Shown here: positions 4,832-12,685 of the stretch, piece by piece
Layout: each line of letters starts with the position of its first letter
Numbering within the stretch: position 1 is the first letter of the stretch
Assembly (NCBI GenBank): GCA_011391545.1
Contig: JAABQI010000022.1
Coordinates: forward strand, 1 to 36,255
DNA length: 36,255 bases
Reading direction: 5' to 3'
DNA from: Rhodoferax sp.
GTDB taxonomy: Bacteria > Pseudomonadota > Gammaproteobacteria > Burkholderiales > Burkholderiaceae_C
The notes under the pieces: generated by a model
What the model saw: the letters and a program-made list of their open reading frames with translations, nothing else
Database searches by the model: none
What the model was told of the DNA's origin: nothing
Program-made: the position numbers and the translations under genes

Positions 4832-6412
4832 CTACAGCTTGGGCAGCACTTCAGTCACGGCATAGGTCGCGATGTCCATCAGTTTGGCATGGCGCGGGTC
4901 GGTGCTGGACAGCAGCGTCGACACCTGAACATAGGAGTTGTTGACAAATACTTTTCCTTCGGGCGCGTCGCGCTCCACGCCGTAGCGGATTTTTGAACGT
5001 TCGGTGACGGACAGCTTGCTGATCAGCCCCTTGGTGGCCCATATCTTGCCAAAGCGGGCCAGGTCAGACAAGCGGCCACAGATATTGATGGTTTCACCCA
5101 GCACCACCAGTTCAAAGTTAGTGTTGGTCCTGAACGTGCCCAGCCATTCTTCACCCTCGCTCAAGCCAATGTTCATGTACAAGGGGTTGGTCCAGCCCTT
5201 GCGCACCATCCATTCGTGGCTGATGTTCTTCATGGTTTCGCGCACCTTGTTGGCGCACAGCACGGCGTTCATCAGGTAATTGCGGTCGGGCTGTGGAAAG
5301 AAGTAATAGACCATGCCGTCACCCGTGTGTTTGCCATAGGCACCGTAATACTCCCTGAAGATCGGATCCAGCGTGGACCAAATCTGGTTGATCAATTGAA
5401 AATAGTCTTCTGGCGGCAACTCGGAGCAGATACGTACCGAGTTTTGCAGGTCGGCCACCATCACGGCCAGCGGCGTCAGCACCGGCAGGCGCTGGCTGAG
5501 CAGGCCGCGAATGAACGAGTCGCGCCGCGACACACAGTTCAGCAGTTGGTTCACATCCTGCTTTTCCGGCACATAAACAATCAACACGCCTTCGCGAAAG
5601 CTCAATGCCACCACCTGGCAGGGGCCGATCTCCGGGTCGGGATGAACCAGGCCGACGATGTGCTGGATCCTGTTTTCGGGTTCAGGGCAATGGTCATAAC
5701 AGTCCATCAGCCATTGCCGCTGCGTATCAGCCAGGTTACCCAGGTTCTGGCTGAAGGCCTGGCGCGACAAGCGACTTTTGATGGGTCCCAAATGGGCGTT
5801 GAACAAACTGGCCTGCTCCTGCGGGGGCAAGGTTGCAGCCCATTCCAGGAGGGTGGGCACGATGGAGCGGTCGTTGGCCCGCTCCGGGATCGGGTTGTCG
5901 GCGAAGAACTCTCGTTGGGCCAGCGCGTTGAGCCAGATCAACTGGAACTCGAAGTTGACCATGTAGGCGGGATACGGAATGTTTTCGACCGACACCTGAA
6001 CGGATTCGCTGCGCTGGACAGTGGCTGGCGCCGTCCGTTTTTCAGAAAAAGGTGAACTGCCATTTGGCATGGTGGGCATCGGAGCAGGCCCGGCAGTGGC
6101 AGTTGGCGATGGCGCAGTTGCGGGAGCGGGAGCGGGTTCGGGTGTGGACTGCCTGGATTTGACCGGCTCGGCCTCATCGGCCAGTTGACGCTTGATGTCG
6201 TCCATGCTGACACCAGCGCGCTTGAGTTCTTGAATGTTCTCGATGCGTTCCAGCGCCCAATCCGGGAAATAGCCCAAGGTCGTGGGCGCTTCGCCCGGCG
6301 CTGCCGCTTGCCGTCGCACTTCAGGCCGGGGCAGGAGCCCGACGGCGATGTAATTATTGAGGGTGGCACGCGAAATACCGGCACCTTCAAGCAACGCGAC
6401 GCTGGTTAACAT
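4832..6412 (-). CDS. MerR-type DNA-binding domain fused to class III adenylyl cyclase
   Basis: Numbered from GTG 6424 (530 residues). Residues 5-82 are a MerR-like winged helix: LLEGAGISRATLNNYIAVGLLP, then GYFPDWALERIENIQELKRAGVSMDDIKRQL. Residues 85-140 form a Pro/Ala linker; 143-310 look PAS-like (YPAYMVNFEFQLIWLNALAQ). Residues 318-500 are a nucleotide cyclase catalytic domain. Metal-binding Asp are D325 and D369 (GKHTGDG); K365 occupies the position that selects ATP over GTP; N447 and R451 (INICGR) match the transition-state pair. No membrane segment, so likely cytosolic and on DNA. Prediction: makes cAMP and binds DNA. I prefer ATG 6412, which has GGA 7 bases upstream; GTG 6424 is the alternative. 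It is divergent from a Popeye-like gene across a motif cluster. Confidence 0.85.
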   Translation of the reverse strand: MLTSVALLEGAGISRATLNNYIAVGLLPRPEVRRQAAAPGEAPTTLGYFPDWALERIENIQELKRAGVSMDDIKRQLADEAEPVKSRQSTPEPAPAPATAPSPTATAGPAPMPTMPNGSSPFSEKRTAPATVQRSESVQVSVENIPYPAYMVNFEFQLIWLNALAQREFFADNPIPERANDRSIVPTLLEWAATLPPQEQASLFNAHLGPIKSRLSRQAFSQNLGNLADTQRQWLMDCYDHCPEPENRIQHIVGLVHPDPEIGPCQVVALSFREGVLIVYVPEKQDVNQLLNCVSRRDSFIRGLLSQRLPVLTPLAVMVADLQNSVRICSELPPEDYFQLINQIWSTLDPIFREYYGAYGKHTGDGMVYYFFPQPDRNYLMNAVLCANKVRETMKNISHEWMVRKGWTNPLYMNIGLSEGEEWLGTFRTNTNFELVVLGETINICGRLSDLARFGKIWATKGLISKLSVTERSKIRYGVERDAPEGKVFVNNSYVQVSTLLSSTDPRHAKLMDIATYAVTEVLPKL

Positions 6413-6435
6413 GAGACTATCCACTGCTTTCTTTG

Positions 6436-6646
6436 TTAGACAATTGAACTATATAGATATACAGCTGGATTGCAAGTGTCCAAGCCACAAGACAATCAAT
6501 GCAGACACGCTATGTTGCTTTCCTGCATCAGTTGTCCAACCGGCTTCAACTGTCTAACTTAAATTTAGCAGCTGTCTATCTGATGTTTAGCTGTCCAATT
6601 GCCTGTCCAGATCGTAATGCGACACTCCAGTGCCGATTGCTGGACA
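6436..6646. promoter_or_regulatory. Cluster of eight TGTCYA motifs, probable operator array
   Basis: Eight copies of TGTC(C/T)A lie in 211 bases between the divergent cyclase and Popeye-like genes. Plus-strand copies start at 6477, 6533, 6551, 6573, 6592 and 6604; minus-strand copies cover 6437-6442 and 6641-6646. Five extend to TGTCYAA, and the copy at 6533 sits in the palindrome GTTGTCCAAC. Successive copies at 6533, 6551, 6573 and 6592 are 18, 22 and 19 bases apart, about two helical turns. Chance would give well under one copy. The natural candidate to bind is the MerR domain encoded next door, but that is inference. Confidence 0.6.
6448..6475 (-). promoter_or_regulatory. Possible sigma-70 promoter of the cyclase gene
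   Basis: On the minus strand, TTGCAA (6475-6470) and TATAGT (6453-6448) are spaced by 16 bases and lie upstream of the cyclase start. One TGTCYA copy (6477-6483) abuts the -35 and another (6436-6443) falls at the predicted transcription start. The boxes are assigned by eye. Confidence 0.4.
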
Positions 6647-6696
6647 CCTGAAGCGGCCGCTTAATTGTTTTGGCTTGAATTGCAAGGGGAGACGTT

Positions 6697-7386
6697 TTGA
6701 ATTTTGAACTTGGCTTTTATGACTGGCTGGCTTTCAGTTCCTACGGACTGATTGCGATCTCTTATTCCATGCGGGACATCAAGTGGTTGCGTGTCATCAC
6801 CGTGGTGGCCTGCTTTGTGGACTTGGTGGTTTATTACTTCATCCGCGCTGGACAACCCCTGTGGGTGCAACTGGGAATGAACGTGCTGTTCATCGTGATC
6901 AACCTGTACCAGCTGTATGTGTTGTGGCAAGACCAGCAGGCCGAGGTTTTTCATGGCGAGCAGGCCTGGCTCTACAAGCACGTTTTTCCTTTGCTCTCCC
7001 CCGGCGAATTCAAGCGCCTGCTCAAACTGGGTTCTTGGCGAACGCTCGCGCCGCAGCAGCTTGTGCTGCACAAGGACAGCGTGGTGGAGCAACTGGGGTT
7101 TGTGGTGACCGGACGCCTGGACGCGCTCTGGGGCACCACCGTTTTGAACTCAGTGCCCGCCGGCGGTCTGGTCGGCGAGATCAGCTACCTGACTGGCAAG
7201 ACAGCCTCCGCGGCGGTGGTTGCCGGCCTGGAAACCCGCCTGTTCAGTCTGGCCCACAGCGCGCTGGACAAGCTCAAGGTTGACCACCCTGAACTGCACA
7301 ACAAGGTGCTGTACATCCTGAGCCGCAACCTGATTGAGAAACTGGCCAAATCCAACCAGCAGACCGCAGATTGGGCCACATCCTGA
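6697..7386 (+). CDS. Popeye-like membrane protein with degenerate cNMP-binding domain
   Basis: A 229-residue protein with three hydrophobic helices at about 10-25, 30-48 and 55-77, followed by a cytosolic domain (about 95-215) with a cyclic-nucleotide-binding fold: QLGFVVTGRLDALWG, then GGLVGEISYLTGKTASAAVV. This layout matches the Popeye-domain family, whose animal members bind cAMP. In the phosphate-binding cassette G160-E161 are kept, but the usual Pro-Arg is T169-A170, so binding of a cyclic phosphate may be weak or lost. The TTG start at 6697 has a strong AAGGGGAGA site 4 bases upstream, and no in-frame ATG fits better. It is divergent from the cyclase and convergent with the patatin gene. 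Confidence 0.72.
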   Translation: MNFELGFYDWLAFSSYGLIAISYSMRDIKWLRVITVVACFVDLVVYYFIRAGQPLWVQLGMNVLFIVINLYQLYVLWQDQQAEVFHGEQAWLYKHVFPLLSPGEFKRLLKLGSWRTLAPQQLVLHKDSVVEQLGFVVTGRLDALWGTTVLNSVPAGGLVGEISYLTGKTASAAVVAGLETRLFSLAHSALDKLKVDHPELHNKVLYILSRNLIEKLAKSNQQTADWATS

Positions 7387-7446
7387 CTCTGAGGGTTTTC
7401 AGTTCATCGCAGCGCCATCCGCCGGCACAGTAACCGCCACCGGGAA

Positions 7447-9306
7447 TCAGGCGCGTGGCCGAAATGGTTTGAGTTGTTCCTCAGACTGCGCGTCAAGTAC
7501 CTCGCAGGCGTACTCGTAACCCTGCTTGGCAATGCTGTCAAAGCGCTGCCACTGCAGCATGCCCACCCGCTCCAGCGGCGGGCTGAAGTAGAGATCAGTC
7601 AACTTGCGCGATTCGCCCTGGCGCGAGGTGCTGTACACGATGTTGACATTGAGCAAATAGGCCATCAGAGAGGGCACCTTGTAGCGGCGCTGCTGGCGCG
7701 GGCGCAGGCGGTCGCGCAGCAGCGTCCAGGTGCCCGGCACTTCGTCAAACGCCACGGGCTTGGGCCGGCGCGTGCCCAGGTCCATGCCGATGACCTTGCC
7801 CACGCCGCGGCGCTTTCGCATGATGCTGACCGGAAAGTTGTTGAAAGTGCCGCCGTCAAACAGCAGGTCGCCAGCCACCGGCACCGGCGGGAATGCGCCG
7901 GGGATGGCGGTGCTGGCCAGAAGCGCCTGGGCCAGGGGACCCTGGCTGATCACCTGTTCGCGGGCCTCGGTGTAGTTGCTGGCTACGCAAAAGAAGTTTT
8001 TCCAGGTGTCCTCGATGTCCGCCGGGTGACCAAAGACTTTATCCAACGCGACTTGCAGAATGCGGCGCATGCGGCGCCCGCGAATGAGCGAAATGAGCGG
8101 CAGCAGGTTGAAGTCGCCGGTGGGTTTGTCGGCAAAGGCCGCGCGCGCAATCGGCATCAGGCTGTCCAGCGGTTGGTCCGATGCCACCATGGCCGCCATG
8201 ATGGCGCCAATGCTGGTGCCGCCGACAAAGTCAACCACCAGGCCGCGCTCCTGCAGCGCCTGGTACAGCCCCAGGTGCGCCAGGCCCTTGGCGCCGCCAC
8301 CGGCGAGCACCAGGCCGACCGCGGTGCGGCTCTGAATGCGCGCCAGCCGCGCCATGTCGCTGTCCAGCAGCGGGCGCACATGCACATGATCGGTGACCGG
8401 TCGGCGCGCCAGCCATTTGCCCGTGCCGCTCGGACAGCGCACCGCATCCTCGTGCATCAGCACCAGGATTTGCGCCGCCCCACTCTGCCCGCTGCGCTGC
8501 ATCAGGCAGGCGCTTTCGGTTTCATGCAGCACCGGCGGTTGGCTGGCGTCGGCCAACAGCAAGATCTCGTCGCTGTGGCGGCTGCAGCGCTGCGTCCAGG
8601 CGCTGGCATCGGCGTCGCCCACCAGCAGCACAAAGTCGTGTGCCAATTCCAGTTGATCCAAGCACGCAGCAACGCGGCGGTTGGCGGCCACGTCGGTGGC
8701 CGCGCTGCGCGCCAGGCCCGGCTGTTGCAGGGCCGCATCGACGTCGCTCGCAGCCACCAGGCAAACCTTGCCCATTCGACCGAGTTGTGCGGCCAGTCGC
8801 CGGGCGAATTCAGCGGCATCCACCCCGGCAGTGACGGGTAGCAGGGCCATGGCAACCGGTGGCGGCACGGCAGTCAGCAAACTGGTGCTGGTGAGCCGCT
8901 TGATCATCTGGCGGGTCAACAAGATGGACATTTGCGCGCTGCTGGCCAGCAGCAGGCTGAACTCGGACTTGGCCAGGCGCACCAGCAATGAGTTGCGGAT
9001 GGCGACCACGGTGGCCGTGCGCGGCTCGTCGGTGTAGAGGCTCATCTCACCAATGATCTCGCCGCGCCCCATCTCGCGCACCATGCGCTCTTCACCGCCA
9101 TCGTCCCGCACCGTGACCCGCAGGCGCCCGCTGATCGACAAATACATGGCATCGCCAGCCTCGCCCTGGCGCATCAGCGTGTCGCCGGCGGCCACTTCAA
9201 CCCACTGCAGGTGGCGCCGCAACAGCGCAATGGCTTCGGCATCGAGGTCGCTGAGCATGTGCTGCAAATGCTGGTTGAGCACCTGCTCAGGGTAATCAGT
9301 AGTCAT
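7447..9306 (-). CDS. cNMP-binding patatin-like phospholipase (NTE/RssA type)
   Basis: A 619-residue protein. Residues 18-140 form a cyclic nucleotide-binding domain with a complete phosphate cassette, GEMSLYTDEPRTATVV, including R96. Residues 150-310 resemble the middle region of NTE-like proteins. The patatin domain (about 330-500) has the oxyanion loop GLVLAGGGAKGLAHLG, the nucleophile S365 in GTSIG and the catalytic D484 in FDGGTFNNFP. Expected activity is a lipid ester hydrolase (lysophospholipase type) controlled by cAMP or cGMP. No membrane helix is obvious. ATG 9306 is preferred (GGA 6 bases upstream); a TTG at 9327 is in frame. A TGTCCAA copy at 9311-9317 lies just before the start, as in the cyclase promoter cluster. 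Confidence 0.9.
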   Translation of the reverse strand: MTTDYPEQVLNQHLQHMLSDLDAEAIALLRRHLQWVEVAAGDTLMRQGEAGDAMYLSISGRLRVTVRDDGGEERMVREMGRGEIIGEMSLYTDEPRTATVVAIRNSLLVRLAKSEFSLLLASSAQMSILLTRQMIKRLTSTSLLTAVPPPVAMALLPVTAGVDAAEFARRLAAQLGRMGKVCLVAASDVDAALQQPGLARSAATDVAANRRVAACLDQLELAHDFVLLVGDADASAWTQRCSRHSDEILLLADASQPPVLHETESACLMQRSGQSGAAQILVLMHEDAVRCPSGTGKWLARRPVTDHVHVRPLLDSDMARLARIQSRTAVGLVLAGGGAKGLAHLGLYQALQERGLVVDFVGGTSIGAIMAAMVASDQPLDSLMPIARAAFADKPTGDFNLLPLISLIRGRRMRRILQVALDKVFGHPADIEDTWKNFFCVASNYTEAREQVISQGPLAQALLASTAIPGAFPPVPVAGDLLFDGGTFNNFPVSIMRKRRGVGKVIGMDLGTRRPKPVAFDEVPGTWTLLRDRLRPRQQRRYKVPSLMAYLLNVNIVYSTSRQGESRKLTDLYFSPPLERVGMLQWQRFDSIAKQGYEYACEVLDAQSEEQLKPFRPRA

Positions 9307-9552: not shown

Positions 9553-10608
9553 ATGAAATTCGTTCGTCATTCATCCCTTCTCGCACTCGCCATTGGCGCC
9601 GCGCTGTCTGCGCCTGCGATGGCCCAGGAAACCGTGCGCTGGGGCATCCCGATGTCCTTTGGCTCGAATCTGGTGGCGCTCGGCGACACCATGCCCTGGG
9701 TTTCGGAGCAGCTCAAAAAGGTTTCCGGCGGCACGGTGAATCTGCAGGTGTTCGAGCCGGGCAAGCTGGTGCCTGCGCTGGCCATTTTCGACAGTGTCTC
9801 CACTGGCAAGGTGGAAGCGGGCTACAGCTGGATGGGCTATGAAATTGGCAAGGTGCCGGTCTCCGCCTTGTTTGGCGCAGTGCCGTTTGGCATGGAAACA
9901 CCCATGTTCTCGGCCTGGATGTTTTTTGGCGGCGGCGATGCCCTGCTCAAGGAAGCCTTCAAGCCGCACAACGTCTATCCAATCTTCTGCGGCTCAGTCA
10001 GCCCGGAAGCCGCCGGCTGGTTCCGCAAGGAAATCAACAAGCCTGATGACCTCAAGGGCCTGAAGTTCCGCGCTGCCGGCTACGGTGGCAAGGTCTATCA
10101 GAAACTGGGCGCTTCGGTGACCATGCTGCCGGGCGGCGAACTGTTCCAGGCGCTGGAAAAGGGTGTGCTCGACGGCACCGAGTTTTCGCTCCCCACCGTC
10201 GATGACCAGTTGGGTTTCTCCAAGGTTGCCAAGAACTACTACCTGCCCGGCTGGCACCAGCCCTCCACCAACCAGTTCCTCTACGTGAACATGGCTGCCT
10301 GGAACAAGCTCAAGCCACAAACCCAGGCGCAGATCGAAACCACCTGCACCGCCGGTGTCGCCATGGCCATTGCCAAGGCGGAAGCGCTGCAGGGTGAAAC
10401 GCTGACCAAGTTTGAAAAAGATGGCGTCAAGGCGCGCCAGTTCAACAAGGTCATGCTGGATGCTTTTGCCAAGGCCACGAAGGAAGTGATGGCCGAAGAA
10501 TCAGCCAAAGACCCGCTTGTCAAGAAGGTGTACGACAGCATGACCGCCTTCCAGGACAAGAACGAAAAGTGGCACAACCTTGGCTACCTGCCACGTGACT
10601 ACAAGTAA
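9553..10608 (+). CDS. dctP: TRAP transporter substrate-binding protein, DctP family
   Basis: A 351-residue periplasmic solute receptor that hands a carboxylate ligand to the DctQM permease. A Sec signal peptide is visible (MKFVRHSSLLALAIGAALS, cleavage predicted at APAMA/QE). The family core LKGLKFRAAGYGGKVYQKLG contains the Arg expected to hold the ligand carboxylate; MLPGGELFQALEKGVLDGTE and YYLPGWHQPSTNQF follow. These resemble the branch that includes 2-oxo acid and aromatic-acid receptors, so a keto- or aromatic acid is a guess. AGGAG (9540-9544) lies 8 bases before ATG 9553. It is the first gene of the dctPQM operon. Confidence 0.92.
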   Translation: MKFVRHSSLLALAIGAALSAPAMAQETVRWGIPMSFGSNLVALGDTMPWVSEQLKKVSGGTVNLQVFEPGKLVPALAIFDSVSTGKVEAGYSWMGYEIGKVPVSALFGAVPFGMETPMFSAWMFFGGGDALLKEAFKPHNVYPIFCGSVSPEAAGWFRKEINKPDDLKGLKFRAAGYGGKVYQKLGASVTMLPGGELFQALEKGVLDGTEFSLPTVDDQLGFSKVAKNYYLPGWHQPSTNQFLYVNMAAWNKLKPQTQAQIETTCTAGVAMAIAKAEALQGETLTKFEKDGVKARQFNKVMLDAFAKATKEVMAEESAKDPLVKKVYDSMTAFQDKNEKWHNLGYLPRDYK

Positions 10609-10640
10609 TCACTGAACCACGCGCTACACATGCGCGCACC

Positions 10641-10683
10641 AAGCCGTTCCAGAAAGCAACTGCCAACTGGAACGGCTTGTTTT
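10641..10683 (+). terminator. Strong hairpin terminator/attenuator between dctP and dctQ
   Basis: AAGCCGTTCCAG (10641-10652) pairs perfectly over 12 bases with CTGGAACGGCTT (10667-10678), loop of 14, followed by GTTTTTG. It stands within the operon, so it probably lets most transcripts stop after the binding protein while some read through into the permease genes. Confidence 0.85.
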
Positions 10684-10700
10684 TGTCAAGGAGAATATCA

Positions 10701-11264
10701 ATGAAGACAAATATACAGGGCGCCGATGGCGCGGTCGTGGGCTTGTCCGGGCTCACCCTGCCCACCACCGGTTTCTCGCGCGCCGTTGACAGGGTGATTC
10801 GCTGGTCCGGTGAATTTGCCTCGGCCTTATGGACTATTCTGGTGATGACCATCGTGCTTCAGGTCGTGTTGCGCTATGCTTTCGGCATTGGTTCCATCAT
10901 GCTCGAAGAAACCCAGTGGCACCTGTACGCCGTTGGTTTCCTTCTCGGGTTGGCGTTTACCGAACTGCAAGAGAAGCACGTGCGCATCGACGTGCTGTCT
11001 GCCGGTTTCACCAGCAAAACCCGCCTGTGGATCGAATTCTTGGGCATCAGCTGCTTTTTGATGACCTTTTCCTTGTTGGTCATCTGGTTTGCCGTGCCTT
11101 TTGTGGTGAGTTCGTGGGAACTCAGTGAGGTGTCGGCTGCACCCGGTGGACTGCCCTACCGCTGGGCCATCAAATCCTTCATCGTCACCGCTTTTGTCCT
11201 GCTGGCCTTGATTGGCATGAGCCGCCTGACCCGTGTCTGGGCGGCGCTGTCGAGTTCACGCTGA
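10701..11264 (+). CDS. dctQ: TRAP transporter small permease, DctQ family
   Basis: A 187-residue inner-membrane protein with four helices (about 38-58, 72-90, 110-130, 155-175). Conserved features include VLRYAFGIGSIMLEETQWHLYAVGFLLGLAF and EKHVRIDVL, typical of DctQ (the Trp-containing EE/ETQ segment and the VRVD-like motif). It partners with DctM to form the transporter. ATG 10701 is supported by AAGGAGA (10688-10694); a TTG-type start at 10677 would sit inside the hairpin stem and is rejected. The N-terminal ~30 residues are longer than usual before the first helix. Confidence 0.9.
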   Translation: MKTNIQGADGAVVGLSGLTLPTTGFSRAVDRVIRWSGEFASALWTILVMTIVLQVVLRYAFGIGSIMLEETQWHLYAVGFLLGLAFTELQEKHVRIDVLSAGFTSKTRLWIEFLGISCFLMTFSLLVIWFAVPFVVSSWELSEVSAAPGGLPYRWAIKSFIVTAFVLLALIGMSRLTRVWAALSSSR

Positions 11265-11317
11265 GCAAGCGAACCCGCGTAAGCACGTTAAACCCTACAA
11301 CTTTTCGAGAATAGTCC

Positions 11318-12685
11318 ATGCCTTTTTACGAAATCCTTTCCATCGGGCTCATGGTCACATTCATTGTGTCCCTGTTTCTAGGTTATCCGGTGGCCTGGTT
11401 GCTGGCGGGCATATCGATTCTTTTTTCCGCCATCGCCATCGTCCTGACGACCCAGTTCGGCATGGACACCTTTTTACTGACCAGTTGGGTCAAGTTCTCC
11501 GGCATTGTTGACCGCTTTGACGCCATCATGTCGAACTGGGTGCTGGTGTCGCTGCCCATGTTTGTTTACATGGGTCTGATGCTGGACCGTTCGGGCGTGG
11601 CCGACGTGATGATGCGCAACTTTGTCAAGGTGTTTGGCGGCATTCGCGGCGGGCTTGGCCTGACCGTCATCGTTATCGGCATTCTGCTCGCGGCCTCAAC
11701 CGGCATCGTGGGCGCCTCGGTGGTGCTGTTGGCCATGTTGTCCATGCCGATCATGCTGCAACACCATTACTCGAAAAAGCTGGCTTGCGGCATCGTGGCG
11801 GCGTCGGGCACGCTGGGTATTTTGATTCCGCCGTCCATCATGCTGGTGCTGATGGCCGACCAGGTGTCGGTGTCGGTGGGCGACCTGTTCATGGGGGCGC
11901 TGATCCCCGGATTGCTGCTGGGTGTGCTTTACATGATCTTTGTCATGCTGGTGGGTATTTTCCGTCCCGACATGTTGCCGCCGCGCCCGGCGGATGCCGA
12001 GAAACTCACGGTGCGTCAAATCGGCATTGCTTTCCTGTCCACCATCCCGACCTTCGGTCTGATTCTGGTGGTGCTGGGCTCGATCTTTTTCGGTATTGCC
12101 ACACCGACCGAAGCGTCGGGTCTGGGAGCATTCGGCGCCATGGTGCTGGCAGGACTCAACGGCAAGCTGAACTGGAAAGTCATACGCCAGGTGGGCATCG
12201 ACACGACCACCACCACCTGCTTCATTTTTGCCATCTTTATTGGCGCCACTGTGTTTGCCTATGTGCTGCGCATGATTGGCGGCGACGAGTTGATTACCGA
12301 ACTCTTCAAGGGCACCGGACTGGGGCCCCAGGGGCTGGTCATACTTGTGCTGGCCGTGGTGTTTGTGGCCGGATTTTTCCTTGACTGGTTCGAGATCGTT
12401 CTGATCATTCTGCCGCTGCTGGCCCCCGTCATCAAACTCGCCGGACTCGACATGACCTGGTTCCTGATTCTGGTGGCACTGATGCTGCAAACCTCGTTCC
12501 TCACGCCGCCGGTGGGCTTTTCGCTGTTCTACCTGAAAGGCGTGGTGCCCAAGGGTGTGACGATTCGCGACATCTATCTTGGCGTGCTGCCCTTCGTCGC
12601 ACTGCAAATGATGATGGTCGCGATCTGCTTCGAATGGCCGCAAGTCATCCTTTGGTTGCCCGAGCAAATGTACGGCGCCAAGTAG
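11318..12685 (+). CDS. dctM: TRAP transporter large permease, DctM family
   Basis: A 455-residue inner-membrane protein with about 12 hydrophobic helices; it forms the sodium-coupled transport channel. Family segments are clear: SLPMFVYMGLMLDRSGVADVM, ILLAASTGIVGASVVLLAM, ASGTLGILIPPSIMLVLMAD, FFGIATPTEASGLGAFGAM and LTPPVGFSLFYLKGV. It is 53 bases downstream of dctQ. Its TAG stop lies two bases from the stop of the convergent acyl-CoA synthetase, leaving no room for a terminator between them. Confidence 0.95.
   Translation: MPFYEILSIGLMVTFIVSLFLGYPVAWLLAGISILFSAIAIVLTTQFGMDTFLLTSWVKFSGIVDRFDAIMSNWVLVSLPMFVYMGLMLDRSGVADVMMRNFVKVFGGIRGGLGLTVIVIGILLAASTGIVGASVVLLAMLSMPIMLQHHYSKKLACGIVAASGTLGILIPPSIMLVLMADQVSVSVGDLFMGALIPGLLLGVLYMIFVMLVGIFRPDMLPPRPADAEKLTVRQIGIAFLSTIPTFGLILVVLGSIFFGIATPTEASGLGAFGAMVLAGLNGKLNWKVIRQVGIDTTTTTCFIFAIFIGATVFAYVLRMIGGDELITELFKGTGLGPQGLVILVLAVVFVAGFFLDWFEIVLIILPLLAPVIKLAGLDMTWFLILVALMLQTSFLTPPVGFSLFYLKGVVPKGVTIRDIYLGVLPFVALQMMMVAICFEWPQVILWLPEQMYGAK

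What the first reader, a model, noticed from the sequence alone, without database searches (positions are those of the whole stretch)
4832..9306. cAMP signalling locus: DNA-binding cyclase, Popeye-like protein and cNMP-gated patatin
Three adjacent genes share one theme. One encodes a class III adenylyl cyclase fused to a MerR-type DNA-binding domain. The next, divergent, encodes a three-helix membrane protein with a cNMP-binding-like domain arranged as in Popeye proteins. The third encodes a patatin phospholipase with an intact cNMP cassette. The cyclase residues (two Asp, Lys, Asn, Arg) and the patatin residues (GTSIG, DGG) are all present, so a working route from cAMP to lipid hydrolysis at the membrane is plausible. 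I know of no described system with this trio, though I could not search.
Basis: partly seen in the sequence, partly recalled or inferred. Interest (0 to 1): 0.85.

Follow-up and report, generated by a model that had tools for sequence, protein, structure and literature searches.

The report
DNA-binding cyclase with its own operator
The three genes are real, and the striking one is a gene regulator fused to a cAMP-making enzyme, shared by many betaproteobacteria and usually sitting beside a repeated DNA motif that looks like its own control switch; the trio as a set is found only in one small group of relatives.

Summary
Confirmed: a MerR-HTH/class III cyclase (4832-6412, minus), a divergent membrane protein with a CNBD (6697-7386, plus) and a CNBD/NTE-type patatin (7447-9306, minus). 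The trio is not a conserved unit: Popeye occurs in 2 of 89 genomes of the genus (the second cut by a contig end) and lies as an insert between a cyclase-patatin pair that is directly adjacent in 6 of 10 close-clade genomes. Of 80 named MerR-cyclase loci only 7, all of that clade, hold this patatin.

The stronger finding is the cyclase. It belongs to a mainly betaproteobacterial family; catalytic residues are kept in 87-88 of 90 distinct sequences. TGTCYA half-sites surround its promoter: GTCTAA is the top 6-mer upstream of 78 members (152 seen, 2.7 expected), and 68 of 78 have two or more sites against 14 of 584 control upstreams. Two pseudocyclases keep the sites. In the window eight sites fill the cyclase-Popeye gap.

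Best reading: an autoregulating, DNA-binding adenylyl cyclase whose cAMP can reach a local CNBD lipase. The patatin cassette is canonical; Popeye has Ala for the phosphate arginine (7 of 7), so cAMP binding there is uncertain. No binding or enzyme activity is shown.

The parts
4832..6412 (-). MerR-HTH / PAS-like / class III adenylyl cyclase gene (longest ORF to 6424; stop codon included)
   Evidence: Pfam; start by alignment with relatives; AF2 model; Foldseek best match CyaB 3r5g, TM-score 0.83 normalised by the target
6173..6412 (-). MerR-type HTH, residues 1-80
   Evidence: MerR_1 match; AF2 helices; dN/dS about 0.04 against G239, the lowest of the three folded regions
5564..5980 (-). PAS-like sensor domain, residues 145-283 (order strand-strand-helices-strand-strand-strand)
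   Evidence: AF2 secondary structure; one of six slices gave MLTR_LBD at E 0.012, below cut-off; no solved relative found by profile (best E 1.4)
4835..5524 (-). class III cyclase domain, residues 297-526, with D321 K361 D365 E434 N443 R447
   Evidence: residue counts
6437..6646 (.). array of eight TGTCYA/TRGACA half-sites (6437, 6477, 6533, 6551, 6573, 6592, 6604, 6641)
   Evidence: about 0.29 expected per 390 bases from the rest of the window; family-wide enrichment
6448..6475 (-). putative cyclase promoter TTGCAA-16-TATAGT, with a half-site at each end
   Evidence: consensus match only (1 found, 0.5 expected in shuffles)
6579..7428 (.). stretch absent from three relatives compared: Popeye gene and three further half-sites
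   Evidence: blastn of window against L042, L043 and L048
6697..7386 (+). Popeye-like membrane protein with CNBD lacking the phosphate arginine (TTG start)
   Evidence: purifying selection on the 71 codons comparable with G221 (dN/dS 0.19)
7447..9306 (-). CNBD / NTE P-loop / patatin phospholipase with intact cassette and catalytic dyad motifs
   Evidence: Pfam; translation; dN/dS 0.12-0.19 in three comparisons

Best explanation
The core is a transcription factor that is also an adenylyl cyclase. Its MerR-type HTH binds several TGTCYA half-sites that overlap and flank its own promoter, most likely repressing itself; a PAS-like domain receives an unknown signal; the C-terminal class III domain, dimeric like the HTH, makes cAMP. 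In this clade the gene is linked to a CNBD-gated patatin that can read the cAMP and act on membrane lipid. In this strain a Popeye-like gene has been inserted so that it is divergently transcribed from the same operator and may share its control. Shown here by sequence: domains, catalytic residues, purifying selection, conserved operator array, clade-restricted linkage. Inferred: DNA binding, repression, cAMP production, lipase gating, any role of Popeye. My odds by step: cognate operator and autoregulation 0.9; active adenylyl cyclase 0.85; patatin activated by this cyclase's cAMP 0.4; Popeye a reader of this cAMP 0.3.
For: Cyclase residues kept in 87-88 of 90 distinct family sequences (102 rows before collapsing). 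Lys plus an acidic residue at the purine sites agree with CyaB (K, D) and not with the guanylyl cyclase Cya2 (E, K) in the alignments. Fold matches CyaB. Operator: GTCTAA is first of all 6-mers upstream of 78 MerR-cyclases (152 seen, 2.7 expected from control upstreams), two or more TGTCYA in 68 of 78 against 14 of 584 controls. Discriminating controls: two homologues that lost the catalytic residues but keep the HTH retain 7 and 3 sites, while 8 of 9 usable class III cyclases of the same family matching only the cyclase region have none. The paired pattern TGTCTAAN0-30TGTCYA has a single place in the window's own genome, the cyclase promoter; over 9 genomes 9 of 18 matches lie at MerR-cyclase promoters. 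HTH is the most constrained region (dN/dS about 0.04, cyclase 0.075, PAS-like 0.10). Linkage: patatin directly adjacent and codirectional in 6 of 10 close-clade genomes, with Popeye between in G000 and by inference in G221. The closest Popeye homologue (40%) lies 91 bp upstream of a CHASE2 class III cyclase on the same strand in another family.
Against: No experiment. Outside one clade the patatin is not linked: 73 of 80 named loci lack it within the DNA held, though only 49 of the 80 loci are 12 kb or longer. Patatins of 65-74% identity occur in the genus without a close-clade cyclase. Only 1 of 11 Popeye-homologue neighbourhoods holds a class III cyclase, some being short (5-20 kb). Popeye lacks the phosphate Arg. 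The half-sites show no single fixed spacing, and clade-b members of the genus have only 0-3 strict TGTCYA. In 4 of 12 genomes of the order search the match starts after the HTH. The genome has 15 PF00027 matches and a second class III cyclase, so cAMP need not be private to this locus. L060 has Gly for the second metal Asp. The nine other paired-pattern matches are no more than the 12 matches of the reversed control pattern, so no wider regulon is seen.
Confidence: 0.6

Rival explanations
1. The trio is a dedicated pathway: the cyclase makes cAMP for Popeye and patatin, which act together at the membrane.
For: Adjacency; both neighbours carry CNBDs; Popeye is under purifying selection on the part comparable with G221 (dN/dS 0.19 over 71 codons); independent Popeye-CHASE2-cyclase neighbourhood in L194.
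Against: Popeye in 2 of 89 genus genomes; insert absent from the three relatives compared; cassette Arg is Ala; patatin linkage restricted to one clade.
Confidence: 0.15
2. The cyclase is simply a transcription factor; its cyclase domain is kept mainly as a nucleotide-sensing or dimerising module, and the neighbouring CNBD genes are chance neighbours in a genome with many of them.
For: Operator array and strong constraint on the HTH; two homologues have dropped the catalytic residues but keep HTH and operator; linked genes vary between genomes.
Against: All six catalytic positions are kept in at least 87 of 90 distinct sequences, which a mere dimer module would not need.
Confidence: 0.15
3. 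The TGTCYA array belongs to another regulator and only happens to lie upstream of these cyclases.
For: TGTCYA resembles the TGTACA half-sites of LitR-type MerR regulators (PMC9758184, passages read), so another MerR protein might use it.
Against: The array accompanies the MerR-cyclase in very different neighbourhoods, stays with pseudocyclases, is missing from most cyclases matching only the cyclase region, and is not enriched elsewhere in the nine genomes searched.
Confidence: 0.08

Closest known systems
CyaB-type class III adenylyl cyclases (PDB 3r5g)
   Same: Best sequence and fold match of the catalytic domain; same metal Asp, Lys, Asn and Arg positions.
   Different: Here the purine-site Asp is Glu and the domain is fused to a MerR-type HTH and a PAS-like domain.
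Class III cyclases with HTH DNA-binding domains in mycobacteria (e.g. Rv0386; recalled, with PMC2447327 seen only in search listings and an empty in-text search)
   Same: A class III cyclase and a DNA-binding domain in one protein.
   Different: As recalled, those are LuxR-type HTH with an ATPase module; here the HTH is MerR-type, N-terminal, and comes with a conserved promoter array.
LitR/CarH MerR-type regulators (PMC9758184, passages read)
   Same: N-terminal MerR HTH, repeated half-sites (TGTACA-N12-TGTACA, one overlapping the -35) and repression, as reported for PmlR2.
   Different: Half-site here is TGTCYA, spacing is variable, the effector region is PAS-like plus cyclase; no B12-binding domain was reported in the Pfam scan.
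POPDC (Popeye) proteins of animals (PMC5872366, PMC6562197, PMC6952887; passages read)
   Same: Three-helix membrane part plus CNBD; Pfam POPDC1-3 model above cut-off in 6 of 6 homologues tested; canonical cassette Arg missing.
   Different: The window member is below cut-off (24.4 against 28.1); bacterial members keep Gly-Glu with Ala for Arg; the DSPE/FQVT motifs reported for animals are not seen in the alignment.
NTE-type patatin phospholipases with CNBDs
   Same: CNBD, NTE P-loop and patatin domains in order, all above Pfam cut-offs.
   Different: One CNBD only; linked to a DNA-binding cyclase in this clade.

Membership tests
Class III nucleotide cyclase | Catalytic fold and Pfam Guanylate_cyc match | tested here: met
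   30.9 bits against cut-off 21.9; Foldseek to CyaB E 8.4e-12
Class III nucleotide cyclase | Two metal Asp, transition-state Asn and Arg | tested here: met
   D321, D365, N443, R447 in window; 88, 87, 87 and 88 of 90 distinct family sequences
Adenylyl (not guanylyl) cyclase | Purine-site Lys plus Asp or Thr | tested here: inconclusive
   Lys met (88 of 90); Asp/Thr position is Glu in 87 of 90; acidic as in CyaB, unlike Cya2
Adenylyl cyclase | Makes cAMP from ATP | not testable with these tools
   needs an enzyme assay
MerR family | N-terminal winged HTH of MerR type | tested here: met
   MerR_1 22.9 bits against 21.6, just above cut-off; helical HTH in AF2 model
MerR family | Acts at a promoter with an elongated 19-20 bp spacer (recalled) | tested here: not met
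   predicted promoter spacer is 16; consensus match only
LitR/CarH group | TGTACA-N12-TGTACA sites | tested here: not met
   sites are TGTCYA with variable spacing
POPDC (Popeye) | Pfam POPDC1-3 above gathering score | tested here: not met
   24.4 against 28.1 for the window; 6 of 6 homologues are above it
POPDC (Popeye) | Three membrane helices before the CNBD | tested here: inconclusive
   two segments pass the hydropathy threshold; three helices in a low-confidence model (pLDDT 45.6)
POPDC (Popeye) | FL/IDSPEW/F and FQVT/S motifs | tested here: not met
   not present in the alignment of 7; motifs from PMC5872366 and PMC6562197
NTE-type patatin with CNBD | Patatin domain with GxSxG Ser and DGG Asp | tested here: met
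   109.7 bits; motifs read
Cyclic-nucleotide-gated enzyme | Cassette with Glu and phosphate Arg | tested here: met
   GEMSLYTDEPRTATV in the patatin
Conserved three-gene system | Trio kept together in relatives | tested here: not met
   Popeye in 2 of 89 genus genomes; 0 of 80 named loci gave a Popeye match

The most novel reading that the evidence does not exclude
A promoter-bound adenylyl cyclase: the protein reports its own operator occupancy, or the PAS-like signal felt there, as cAMP. Because both MerR factors and class III cyclases work as dimers, pairing on the half-site array could switch synthesis on or off, so DNA would be an allosteric partner of a cyclase. The cAMP is then read by membrane effectors recruited to the same locus in different strains (CNBD patatin, Popeye-like protein, CNBD ion channel), a bacterial parallel to the reported animal POPDC1 - adenylyl cyclase 9 - TREK-1 complex (PMC9724675, start of abstract in a listing).
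Probability: 0.2. Interest if true: 0.85.

Novelty: new variant of a known kind. Interest (0 to 1): 0.6.

Why it matters
Cyclic AMP and gene control are normally joined through a separate receptor such as CRP. A conserved family in which the transcription factor is itself the cyclase, with a mapped candidate operator, would make it directly testable whether DNA binding and second-messenger synthesis are coupled in one molecule. The operator is short, repeated and present in cultured species among the hits (Novimethylophilus kurashikiensis, Polynucleobacter), so tests do not depend on metagenomic strains. The bacterial Popeye-like family, once found beside a CHASE2 cyclase, is a lead on the origin of a cAMP effector that the POPDC passages I read treat as confined to animals and some protozoa.

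Tried and rejected
Trio as a conserved system: rejected on distribution. Popeye only in this strain: corrected, a 71-codon piece at 90% identity lies beside the patatin at a contig end in G221, with the same TRAP and AMP-binding genes beyond; its link to the cyclase there is inferred across a contig break and the contigs were not joined. Wider regulon of TGTCYA: not seen with one pattern (TGTCTAAN0-30TGTCYA, one orientation class only) in nine genomes. Sensor identity: MLTR_LBD (E 0.012 in 1 of 6 slices) too weak to use; no solved relative. Popeye model from one sequence failed (pLDDT 45.6), so no fold search was made with it. First motif count used some wrong starts; repeated with starts taken from the HTH motif (L081 and L107 dropped, 78 of 80 used; L090 and L121 have no site). 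Within the negative cyclase control 7 of 16 loci had no usable start, and the one with two sites (L020) starts inside the match.

Literature: papers describing a MerR-cyclase were sought (2 of 2 listed; 12 of 29; 9 of 9; 12 of 480; 9 of 9; 8 of 521). None of the listed titles or abstract starts describes one; long lists were seen only in part and subscription journals are mostly not held. Passages were read in PMC9758184, PMC5872366, PMC6562197, PMC6952887 and PMC1592074; PMC2447327 was searched in text with no hit; PMC9724675 only as a listing.
Full report
OBSERVATION. Pfam finds Guanylate_cyc and MerR_1 in the first, cNMP_binding in the second with POPDC1-3 just below cut-off, and cNMP_binding, NTE_Ploop and Patatin in the third. 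The flanks are sodB and xseA on one side and TRAP transporter genes on the other (TRAP is my reading of the translations). Relatives' alignments put the cyclase start at ATG 6412. The window is one contig of a 3.06 Mb, 318-contig assembly, 79% complete; close relatives carry the name Rhodoferax in several record titles.

THE CYCLASE FAMILY. In the genus search 29 of 89 genomes match at 1e-10; by my count from that table 22 are MerR-cyclases, 10 of a close clade (81% or more identity; G221 only as a C-terminal piece at a contig start) and 12 of a second type near 45%, while 7 match only as generic class III cyclases. In 200 genomes of the family only G000, G130, G097 and G198 hold a MerR-type match; in 399 genomes of the order 12 match at 1e-60, 4 of them only from behind the HTH. 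In the genome collection 181 stretches encode relatives and the best 80 were kept; their titles are mainly betaproteobacterial (Gallionella, Methylotenera, Polynucleobacter, Rhodocyclales and others), a few say Gammaproteobacteria or only Proteobacteria. Of 102 aligned rows, 90 distinct, the six catalytic positions are kept in 87-88. The exceptions are L062 and L063, which have lost nearly all six, L060 (Gly for the second metal Asp), L126 and L094 (one position each).

STRUCTURE. AF2 on 41 sequences gives mean pLDDT 80.5: an HTH at 1-80, a disordered linker at 84-140, a domain at 145-283 with PAS-like order of strands and helices, and the cyclase from about 297. Foldseek matches the cyclase to CyaB; the 50 listed rows are cyclases or cyclase-containing proteins, so nothing is learned there about the middle domain. 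By sequence the middle domain has no solved relative and one weak MLTR_LBD hit.

THE OPERATOR. The window has eight TGTCYA/TRGACA half-sites from 6437 to 6646, where about 0.29 would be expected per 390 bases. Close-clade relatives have 2-6 in the same 390-base stretch; second-type relatives have 0-3. Without assuming a motif, all 6-mers upstream of 78 family members were compared with 584 control upstreams from the same loci: GTCTAA ranks first (152 against 2.7 expected), and TGTCTAA first among 7-mers (129 against 1.9). At least one TGTCYA occurs in 76 of 78, two or more in 68 of 78; controls 84 and 14 of 584. Controls are ORF-called, not annotated, and the family is phylogenetically related, so the z-values are not probabilities. 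Sites are densest 20-100 bases before the start and in the window two of them border the only promoter-like match. The sites go with the HTH: L062 and L063, pseudocyclases, have 7 and 3; of 9 usable cyclases matching only the cyclase region 8 have none. In nine genomes the paired pattern was found 18 times, 9 of these at MerR-cyclase promoters by my reading of the coordinates; the reversed control pattern gave 12. I see no wider regulon, but only one pattern was tried.

THE NEIGHBOURS. In the ten close-clade genomes the patatin is the next gene, same strand, in six (G213, G239, G241, G242, G246, G251; in G251 it is cut by the contig end), beyond Popeye in G000 and by inference G221, about 7.7 kb away in G253, and not found in G212. 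Fifteen of 89 genus genomes have this type of patatin at 1e-60; the nine at 84% or more are all close-clade, but six others (33-74% identity) show it lives without that cyclase. Among the 80 named loci seven hold the patatin, all close-clade, and none gave a Popeye match; 49 loci are 12 kb or longer. Against L042, L043 and L048 the stretch from 6579 to about 7428, with Popeye and three half-sites, is missing. Popeye and TRAP genes are shared only with G221 among the loci that I examined.

POPEYE. In the order search 20 of 399 genomes match at 1e-6, about half over the whole length and the rest in the CNBD or a part only. The six homologues tested pass the POPDC1-3 cut-off. All seven aligned sequences, window included, have Gly-Glu and an Ala in place of the cassette Arg. 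The closest, 40% identical, stands 91 bp upstream of a CHASE2 class III cyclase; the other 10 of 11 neighbourhoods gave no class III cyclase. The piece shared with G221 is under purifying selection. A more distant relative in G213 and G221 keeps the cassette Arg and stands next to a CNBD ion channel a few genes from xseA and the MerR-cyclase.

MECHANISM AND VERDICT. The evidence supports a DNA-binding cyclase that regulates its own promoter, with good odds that it makes cAMP. The step from cAMP to lipid hydrolysis is plausible because the patatin cassette is canonical and the two genes stay together in most of one clade, but it is inferred. A role for Popeye is the weakest step. Novelty: class III cyclases with DNA-binding domains are, as recalled, known in mycobacteria; the MerR type with a conserved operator array was not found in my paper searches, which saw long lists only in part. 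I therefore file it as a new variant of a known kind.

Noticed in passing
L043:985-2788 and L064:2574-4532 (G213, G221): A CNBD membrane protein distantly like Popeye, with the cassette Arg present, is followed by an ion channel with a CNBD and a TVGYGD filter, near sodB, xseA and the MerR-cyclase.
   Followed up: partly
L045:1289-2629, L046:2915-4207, L047:7760-8515: A second, membrane-type class III cyclase lies between xseA and the MerR-cyclase in G239 and G251; only a truncated version is left in G253.
   Followed up: partly
L062:9468-10979 and L063:8481-9446 (G097, G198): MerR-cyclase homologues that lost nearly all catalytic residues but keep the HTH and the TGTCYA array: a natural cyclase-to-plain-regulator series.
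   Followed up: yes
L194:9392-12440 (G567): The closest Popeye homologue stands directly upstream of a CHASE2 class III cyclase, followed by a GAF/HD-domain protein.
   Followed up: partly
L050, L051, L053, L055, L057, L060: Second-type MerR-cyclases of the genus sit behind NfeD-like and SPFH (band 7) genes, a different neighbourhood from the close clade.
   Followed up: no
L060:2456-4000 (G274): Otherwise intact MerR-cyclase with Gly instead of the second metal Asp; real change or assembly error not resolved.
   Followed up: no
G310, G438, G332, G457: Strong family matches that begin behind the HTH, so a form without the MerR domain may exist; one has two stops inside the match.
   Followed up: no
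window 9553-12685: TRAP transporter genes between patatin and the AMP-binding enzyme gene are shared with G221 and missing at that place in the other close-clade loci read.
   Followed up: partly
L169:7996-12117 (G259): The patatin homologue (65%) stands in tandem with a second, longer protein matching the patatin at 28%.
   Followed up: no
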